From Roseovarius sp. TE539 (GTDB lineage Bacteria > Pseudomonadota > Alphaproteobacteria > Rhodobacterales > Rhodobacteraceae): DNA of 64,000 nt. Positions within the stretch are counted from its first letter, which is position 1. The number at the start of each line of letters is the position of its first letter. Below the pieces are notes generated by a model that was given only the letters and a program-made list of their open reading frames with translations, did not search any database and had not been told where the DNA came from. Made by a program: the position numbers and the translations under genes. Location of the stretch: the NCBI RefSeq assembly GCF_003298505.1, contig NZ_QNGB01000001.1:62001-126000 (forward strand), in the 5' to 3' direction. Positions 50,113 to 50,504 of the stretch are shown here, piece by piece.

Positions 50113-50127
50113 GTTCTACCTTTGTTC
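50113..50127 (+). promoter_or_regulatory. Perfect LexA (SOS) box before the OB-fold gene
   Basis: GTTC-TACCTTT-GTTC matches the alphaproteobacterial LexA operator GTTC-N7-GTTC exactly. Its right end is two bases before the ATG of the OB-fold gene at 50130, so LexA would cover the start. It is 111 bases from the ferredoxin start, so control of the ferredoxin is unlikely. Extreme proximity to the start suggests a leaderless or nearly leaderless transcript. Confidence 0.88.
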
Positions 50128-50129
50128 CT

Positions 50130-50504
50130 ATGCGAGTCACGTCCTCACCTACCGCCGCCGGCTGGCCACGCCCGCCTGCGGCCCTGCCCGCCGCCCGGCT
50201 GTGCGAGCCCCACGAAGGTGCGCGCGTGGCGGTGGCCGGGCTGGTGATCCTGCGGCAACGTCCAGGCACCGCGAAAGGCGTGATCTTCATCACCCTTGAG
50301 GACGAAACGGGGGTGGTGAACGTGATCGTCTGGCGCGCGCTTCATGAACGCTTTCGCCGGGCGGTGATTTCGGGGCGGCTATTGCGTGTTACCGGGCGGG
50401 TACAGCGCGCCGACGGGGTGGTGCATGTCATTGCCGAGGTGATCGAGGACATATCGCCGATGCTTGACCACCTGCTTGACTCGCAGGGATCGCCGCACGG
50501 ATGA
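50130..50504 (+). CDS. Stand-alone OB-fold protein matching the missing DnaE2 C-terminus
   Basis: This 124-residue protein is a single OB fold of the kind found at the C-terminus of DnaE2. Diagnostic stretch: [36 protein letters not shown] (about residues 31-66), then [25 protein letters not shown]. It begins with a poorly conserved 25-residue leader rich in Pro and Ala. The DnaE2 at 11508-14384 ends exactly before this module, and 958 plus 124 residues gives the usual DnaE2 length. A perfect LexA box lies directly upstream. No Shine-Dalgarno precedes the ATG; a GTG at 50226 preceded by GAAGG is an alternative that would trim the first strands of the fold. Function as a separate DnaE2 accessory is inference. 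Confidence 0.85.

What the first reader, a model, noticed from the sequence alone, without database searches (positions are those of the whole stretch)
50113..50504. Free-standing DnaE2-type OB-fold gene under a perfect LexA box: the second half of a split polymerase
Seen: the 124-residue product carries the motif [20 protein letters not shown], the hallmark of the DnaE2 C-terminal OB domain, and begins with a short linker. The gene is 36 kb away from the truncated dnaE2. 958 + 124 residues equals a normal DnaE2. A perfect GTTC-N7-GTTC operator lies two bases before the start, and dnaE2 itself has a one-mismatch copy with the same T-rich spacer. Inference: both halves are LexA-controlled and work together after DNA damage as a two-subunit mutasome polymerase. 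I know of no description of such a split; I cannot search to confirm that.
Basis: partly seen in the sequence, partly recalled or inferred. Interest (0 to 1): 0.85.

Follow-up and report, generated by a model that had tools for sequence, protein, structure and literature searches.

The report
Damage-induced DNA polymerase made in halves
In a large group of marine bacteria the error-prone DNA-damage polymerase DnaE2 is encoded as two separate, distant genes (the enzyme core and its nucleic-acid-binding OB domain), each with a conserved damage-response switch site and gained and lost together, which makes it a likely two-part version of a normally single-chain polymerase.

Summary
The 124-aa gene at 50130-50504 is the C-terminal OB domain of DnaE2; the 958-aa DnaE2 at 11508-14384 stops where that domain should begin (positions 6-938 and 943-1039 of one 1047-position model). 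Of 295 genomes of the family (294 genera), 128 carry a free OB gene; 126 of these also carry an OB-less DnaE2 core (5 only as fragments), one (G292) is unresolved and one (G051) has none. On a genome tree core and free OB come and go together (15 independent pairs, about 13 concordant, 0 discordant, median p 0.00024), and their distances co-vary more than those of a neighbouring-gene control. LexA boxes are conserved: perfect GTTC-N7-GTTC at 103 of 108 OB loci (wrong-spacing controls 0-1) and at most one mismatch at 29 of 29 core loci. imuA and imuB stand alone too, each with its own box where checked, so the cassette is scattered into four SOS genes. Free OB proteins carry a WPRPP motif not seen in fused ones, and nearly all lack the SRDF[HR] tail. 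I read it as a two-subunit error-prone polymerase. LexA binding, physical association and phenotype are untested. No description was found in the papers searched. New variant of a known system.

The parts
50130..50504 (+). free-standing DnaE2 OB-domain gene, 124 aa
   Evidence: AlphaFold mean pLDDT 85.9, OB folds among structure matches
50113..50127 (+). LexA box GTTCTACCTTTGTTC
   Evidence: perfect in 103 of 108 OB loci, this one included
50095..50122 (+). inferred promoter: -35 TTGCGA (50095-50100), 16 bp, -10 TACCTT (50117-50122) inside the box spacer; ATG 7 nt further on, so perhaps a leaderless mRNA
   Evidence: column frequencies over the aligned loci: T 91% and G 87% at first and third -35 positions, TATnTT in the spacer; function inferred
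50163..50177 (+). codons of the W-P-R-P-P motif (residues 12-16), found only in free-standing OB proteins
   Evidence: 104 of 120 free OB proteins by a strict pattern, 0 of 13 fused
11508..14384 (-). dnaE2 core (PHP, polymerase, finger, helix-hairpin-helix), 958 aa, ends at HPLALLRDRLTPPGA without OB domain or tail; motifs PDIDVDF and KVDVLSLG present
14401..14415 (-). LexA box of dnaE2, GAACAAAAGGTGAAT (one mismatch)
   Evidence: box of this kind with up to one mismatch in 29 of 29 dnaE2 loci, mostly at about -30
49679..50002 (-). divergent 2Fe-2S ferredoxin gene, usual neighbour of the OB gene (marks one ancestral locus)
   Evidence: Pfam; found in 102 of 108 other OB loci and in 26 of 28 genomes of the rate test

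Best explanation
An ancestral, LexA-controlled DnaE2 was divided between its helix-hairpin-helix region and its OB domain. The core (PHP, palm/fingers, HhH) keeps catalysis and the surfaces by which DnaE2 is modelled to bind ImuB. The OB domain became a separate protein of about 124 aa with its own SOS promoter beside a ferredoxin gene. After DNA damage LexA is cleaved and imuA, imuB, dnaE2-core and OB, at four separate loci, are induced together; the OB protein joins the core (or the assembled mutasome) non-covalently and supplies the contact with single-stranded template. Shown here: the domain complement, clade-wide conservation, LexA boxes on all four genes where examined, linked gain and loss, and co-variation of distances. 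Inferred: LexA binding, induction, the physical complex, ssDNA binding and the role in mutagenesis.
For: Complementary match to one model. Of 128 genomes with free OB, 126 also have an OB-less core, 5 of them as fragments (table corrected for G292). Independent pairs on a DnaE1 tree of 68 genomes: 15 pairs, 12.8 same way, 0 opposite, 2.2 ties, median p 0.00024; 14 pairs, 11.8/0/2.2, median p 0.00049 without incomplete and long-branch genomes. Partial correlation of OB and core distances given DnaE1 0.755 (28 genomes) and 0.603 (21), 0 of 2000 permutations as high; the neighbouring ferredoxin as control gives 0.415 and 0.210 on 22 and 17 genomes, where OB gives 0.752 and 0.617. Boxes: OB 103 of 108 perfect and 11 of 11 further loci; core 29 of 29 with up to 1 mismatch; imuA 7 of 7 and imuB 9 of 9 loci perfect, also D. 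shibae imuA and imuB; OB genes of four small genomes. AlphaFold model of the OB protein with mean pLDDT 85.9 and OB-fold matches. The ImuB contacts modelled in PMC12926913 are to PHP and (HhH)2, both kept in the core.
Against: No physical or functional data. G051 (100% complete) keeps the OB gene without a DnaE2 core. G044, G064, G162 and G180 (95-99% complete, 100-490 contigs) have a core but no OB at E 0.01. Free OB exists beside a fused DnaE2 in G035, G237 and G292. The SRDF[HR] tail of most DnaE2 is missing from 121 of 122 free OB proteins (one of these ends in a similar TRNFG), so the two halves do not add up to a whole DnaE2. Split-specific residues of the core are scattered and mark no docking patch near its C-terminus. 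The ferredoxin control also correlates somewhat with the core.
Confidence: 0.78

Rival explanations
1. The OB protein is now an independent SOS single-strand-binding factor (acting on ImuA/ImuB, RecA or any fork) and the core works without it.
For: G051 keeps OB and has imuA and imuB matches without a core; four genomes have a core and no OB found; own promoter and own N-terminal motif; SRDF tail mostly lost.
Against: Linked presence and absence across about 13 independent contrasts with none opposite; co-variation of distances with the core beyond genome background and beyond the neighbouring gene.
Confidence: 0.15
2. The OB gene is a decaying remnant of a former full-length dnaE2, or the split is a local accident or assembly error of this genome.
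For: Such remnants exist: the Sphingopyxis plasmid gene annotated as OB-fold protein is preceded by DnaE2 C-terminal coding sequence.
Against: A free OB gene is found in 128 genomes of different genera, mostly 61-83% identical and down to 37% in small genomes, with conserved operator and ferredoxin neighbour, also in single-contig genomes such as G141, G045 and G269.
Confidence: 0.02
3. The free OB is a regulatory or shared subunit, for instance rate-limiting for the switch to DnaE2 synthesis or acting also with DnaE1, and not simply a detached domain that returns.
For: A separate promoter allows a separate level and timing; box types differ (perfect at most OB loci, one mismatch at most dnaE2 loci).
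Against: DnaE1 has its own OB domain (background knowledge, not tested here); no expression data.
Confidence: 0.1

Closest known systems
[quoted passage not shown]
   Same: Same core domains, same kind of OB domain, same partner genes and LexA-type boxes
   Different: OB domain on a separate gene; SRDF[HR] tail missing; the four genes scattered
DnaE2 sequences lacking the OB domain (Timinskas 2013, PMC3919608: passages seen, section 21 read)
   Different: No separate OB partner in the passages seen; here the missing domain is found as a co-occurring gene
Stand-alone ImuB-C in variant mutasomes (PMC6511836 passages; PMC12926913 passages and section 22)
   Same: A mutasome domain encoded as a separate protein in SOS-linked systems
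   Different: Concerns ImuB, not the polymerase; 'OB domain' and 'OB-fold' occur 0 times in the main text of PMC12926913
Split imuA'-imuB/dnaE2 cassette of mycobacteria (PMC6511836, passage)
   Same: Cassette genes at separate loci
   Different: There whole genes are separated; here a gene is divided too and imuA and imuB are also apart

Membership tests
DnaE2 error-prone C-family polymerase | NCBIfam PRK05672 match above curated cut-off | tested here: met
   Core 1236.5 bits against 939
DnaE2 error-prone C-family polymerase | Catalytic acidic motifs | tested here: met
   PDIDVDF at 402 and KVDVLSLG at 553; that these hold the catalytic residues is recalled, by analogy with E. coli
DnaE2 error-prone C-family polymerase | C-terminal OB domain in the same chain | tested here: not met
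   OB domain on a separate gene
DnaE2 error-prone C-family polymerase | C-terminal SRDF[HR] tail (in about 77% of DnaE2, PMC3919608) | tested here: not met
   Absent from both window proteins. SRDFH in 11 of 12 fused relatives read in full and AREFR in the twelfth; in 1 of 122 free OB proteins; another fused relative, G292, ends in GRNFR
ImuA-ImuB-DnaE2 mutasome | imuA and imuB in the genome | tested here: met
   Own genome: imuB on C34, imuA on C45
ImuA-ImuB-DnaE2 mutasome | Genes in one cassette | tested here: not met
   Different contigs in the own genome; separate chromosomal places in G141, G229, G239 and G035, though dnaE2 and imuB lie only 23-28 kb apart in G141 and G239
ImuA-ImuB-DnaE2 mutasome | LexA control | tested here: inconclusive
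   Conserved boxes on all four genes where examined; binding and induction not tested
ImuA-ImuB-DnaE2 mutasome | Needed for damage-induced mutagenesis | not testable with these tools
   Needs experiment
OB-fold nucleic-acid-binding proteins | OB barrel | tested here: met
   PF01336 E 2.3e-13; model pLDDT 85.9; Foldseek hits to Stn1, RPA and AspRS structures, best E 5.7e-06

The most novel reading that the evidence does not exclude
A C-family DNA polymerase that works as two separately encoded, separately LexA-switched subunits within a four-piece SOS mutasome. The free OB subunit carries a new WPRPP segment in place of the covalent linker, and the ancestral SRDF[HR] interaction tail was dropped after the split (G194 still has it on its free OB). 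One fused relative (G276) may even be a re-fusion of split genes.
Probability: 0.55. Interest if true: 0.8.

Novelty: new variant of a known kind. Interest (0 to 1): 0.7.

Why it matters
The function of the SRDF[HR] tail of DnaE2 is stated as open (PMC3919608), and as far as I know the part played by its OB domain is not established either. Here nature has taken the OB domain off and kept it as a likely partner in over a hundred genera, among them culturable roseobacters, so its contribution to translesion synthesis can be tested by deleting one small gene and by add-back in trans. It also shows an SOS cassette scattered into four genes with the operator kept on each, and it corrects annotations that would call the core truncated and the OB gene a bare OB-fold protein.

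Tried and rejected
Rejected or left open: (1) that the box at 50113 is significant by itself in the window (one search says no; only conservation carries it). (2) That the Sphingopyxis plasmid OB gene (H27, L187) is an independent case: it is a 5'-truncated dnaE2 remnant. (3) That the split is common outside the family: of 162 genomes of the class, 79 have the OB domain; of the 76 outside the family none shows a clear free OB gene. All matches there lie in open frames of at least 1050 aa except three of 343, 504 and 639 aa, two of them near a contig start, not followed up. (4) That SRDF[HR] stayed on the core or OB: in the cores and OB proteins read only G194's OB has it. (5) A docking patch from split-specific residues of the core: 30 positions, scattered. 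(6) One split or several: starred branches force at least two changes; G194 and G083 show no ferredoxin neighbour in the stretches held, so separate splits and a split with re-fusions both remain open.

Errors and limits: one search has a scripting fault (it reported no genome with OB and no core) and one search counts G292 among the cores although its listed DnaE2 is fused (a second DnaE2 match there was not located). Corrected: 121 near full-length OB-less cores, 5 fragments, G292 unresolved, G051 none. G169 has a second OB match that was not listed. G211 (weak match, E 7e-5) was left out of the counts. Fused fragments at contig edges were assigned. One search was an empty script. One search mishandled loci on the minus strand; one search replaces it. 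Dropped rows: L138 (too near its end), L003 (same locus as L011) and L149 (fused); L041, L002, L010 and L149; G096 (no match) and G122 (partial) from the DnaE1 tree. Some OB loci are the same or close species met in two collections (for example L018/L074, L029/L112, L040/L089), so 108 is not 108 independent species. The genomes of the DnaE1 tree (70 asked, 68 used) were chosen by status, and that tree has long branches (G172, G059). The permutation test also breaks the link to DnaE1, so the ferredoxin control is the better yardstick. Erill 2006 (recalled as the paper on dispersal of the cassette) is not held and was not checked.

Full report
What is there. The gene at 50130-50504 (+) encodes 124 aa with an OB-fold domain (PF01336, E 2.3e-13). 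The best NCBIfam model is the error-prone polymerase PRK05672: this protein covers positions 943-1039, and the 958-aa product of 11508-14384 (-) covers 6-938 of the same 1047. The core has the PHP, polymerase, finger and helix-hairpin-helix domains and ends at HPLALLRDRLTPPGA. The own genome holds one copy of each; the only other match to the core (33% identity, open frame of 1243 aa) is read as DnaE1. AlphaFold gives the OB protein a mean pLDDT of 85.9, and Foldseek returns Stn1, RPA and aminoacyl-tRNA synthetase structures, known OB folds.

How widespread. In 295 genomes of the family (294 genera), 128 have the OB domain as a free gene and 128 have it inside a DnaE2 frame or an edge fragment of one; one genome, G035, is in both groups, and G237 and G292 also turned out to hold a fused copy. 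Of the 128 with the free gene, 121 have a near full-length OB-less core, 5 have only fragments of one (in G237 a broken gene), G292 is unresolved (its listed DnaE2 is fused, a second match was not located) and G051 has none. Seven genomes have a core or core fragment without free OB, four of them with near full-length cores (G044, G064, G162, G180). A scan of genome contigs kept 80 loci: 78 are free OB genes, L138 is cut by its contig edge and L149 (Marinicaulis) is fused; named carriers include Roseovarius, Salipiger, Ruegeria, Leisingera, Mameliella, Shimia, Roseivivax and Planktomarina. In 162 genomes of the wider class no clear case was seen outside the family. G035 is taken to be D. shibae because its contig C4 has the length of plasmid pDSHI03 and the same gene.

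Linkage of the two halves. On a DnaE1 tree of 68 genomes the split, fused and DnaE2-less states are interleaved, so gain and loss can be tested: core and free OB differ together in about 13 of 15 independent pairs and never in opposite ways, median p 0.00024. The one other genome of the same genus, G278, lacks core, OB, imuA and imuB. Protein distances of OB and core correlate after removing DnaE1 (0.755 over 28 genomes; 0.603 over 21 without the fast or transitional ones; 0 of 2000 permutations as high). The ferredoxin gene beside OB gives 0.415 and 0.210 where OB gives 0.752 and 0.617 (22 and 17 genomes).

Regulation. A perfect GTTC-N7-GTTC lies at 103 of 108 OB loci (106 with up to one mismatch) against 0-1 perfect for eight other spacings; in 60 of the 106 the first in-frame start after the box is an ATG 2 nt away, and in 86 a start lies 1-3 nt away. 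The spacer reads mostly TATnTTT, and a conserved T-n-G (T 91%, G 87%) stands where a -35 would be, with 16 bp between the hexamers; I infer that the operator covers the -10 element of a promoter giving a leaderless mRNA. dnaE2 has a box with up to one mismatch at 29 of 29 loci, most often GAACAAAAnGTGAAT at about -30. Of the 7 counted as perfect, the one in this genome (window 14460-14474) lies in the preceding gene and is not the conserved site. imuA (7 of 7 loci) and imuB (9 of 9 loci, split-type genomes) have perfect boxes of their own at separate places, and D. shibae shows the same for both. The box also stands before the diverged OB genes of four small genomes, 37-48% identical. So the usual cassette is scattered into four genes with SOS boxes.

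Anatomy of the change. Fused relatives carry the C-terminal SRDF[HR] motif that Timinskas and co-workers proposed as an interaction motif (PMC3919608, section 21): SRDFH in 11 of 12 fused proteins read in full and AREFR in the twelfth, but in only 1 of 122 free OB proteins, G194's. One more free OB protein (L075) ends in TRNFG, G083 has a decayed copy, and the fused protein of G292 ends in GRNFR. Free OB proteins carry W-P-[RK]-P-P just before the barrel (104 of 120 by a strict pattern; 112 of 120 have a tryptophan in the 45 residues before the RQRPG loop; 0 of 13 fused have one). The model places residues 11-20 with a mean pLDDT of 94, which suggests that this segment packs on the barrel and does not dangle. 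In G194 the free OB gene has its own perfect box, and the only long open frame between dnaE2 and OB is on the opposite strand. Ferredoxin is found near OB in 102 of 108 loci and in 26 of 28 genomes of the rate test, not in G194 or G083; so the main clade inherited one ancestral OB locus, and G194 and G083 may be separate events. On the core tree 29 split proteins form one clade (SH-aLRT 99) with G083 (split) and the fused G276 at its base; at least two changes are forced.

Mechanism. Published models put ImuB contacts on the PHP and (HhH)2 regions of DnaE2 (PMC12926913, section 22 read), both in the core. The core could therefore join ImuA-ImuB without the OB domain, which I propose joins non-covalently and holds template strand. 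That step, the LexA binding and the phenotype are inference.

Literature. Searches of the held library (only the listed papers of each were seen) showed no paper on a separately encoded DnaE2 OB domain. PMC3919608 notes DnaE2s without OB (passages). The D. shibae LexA study PMC6473078 has no hit for dnaE2, imu or OB-fold in its main text. PMC9426580 mentions the plasmid imuA-imuB-dnaE2-type cassette of D. shibae (passages). The main text of PMC12926913 (2026) has no 'OB domain' or 'OB-fold'. Subscription papers and supplements were not searched.

Verdict.

Noticed in passing
G278 (same genus as the window's genome): Lacks core, OB, imuA and imuB matches altogether, although the four are at separate places in the window's genome: a clean co-loss.
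   Followed up: partly
L175 (own genome C34:23000-28000), imuB: ImuB of this genome has an inserted, basic stretch of some 45 residues after the ALARF segment compared with ImuB of a fused-type cassette; in many split-type genomes the best match also starts only near query residue 135-156.
   Followed up: no
L158/L188, G035 (Dinoroseobacter shibae) plasmid pDSHI03: Second, complete cassette with fused OB and tail, beside the split chromosomal set.
   Followed up: partly
L191, G051: OB gene with perfect box and ferredoxin neighbour kept although no DnaE2 core is found in a genome rated 100% complete.
   Followed up: partly
L187:6061-6462 (Sphingopyxis sp. DBS4 plasmid): Gene annotated as OB-fold protein is a remnant of dnaE2: the sequence just upstream encodes the polymerase C-terminus.
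   Followed up: yes
L150, G276 fused DnaE2: Fused protein near the base of the split clade; its junction MGRAPAPLPAAAL resembles the start of free OB proteins, possibly a re-fusion.
   Followed up: partly
L310, G292:C88: Fused DnaE2, 68% identical to the window's core, ending in GRNFR, in a genome that also has a free OB gene.
   Followed up: partly
window 14460-14474 (-): A perfect GTTC-N7-GTTC lies in the coding region before dnaE2, about 90 nt upstream; it does not appear among the best boxes printed for the other 28 dnaE2 loci.
   Followed up: partly
L189, G237:C11: Broken split-type dnaE2 core, with an intact free OB gene on C33 and a fused copy on C26: perhaps displacement of the split form in progress.
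   Followed up: partly
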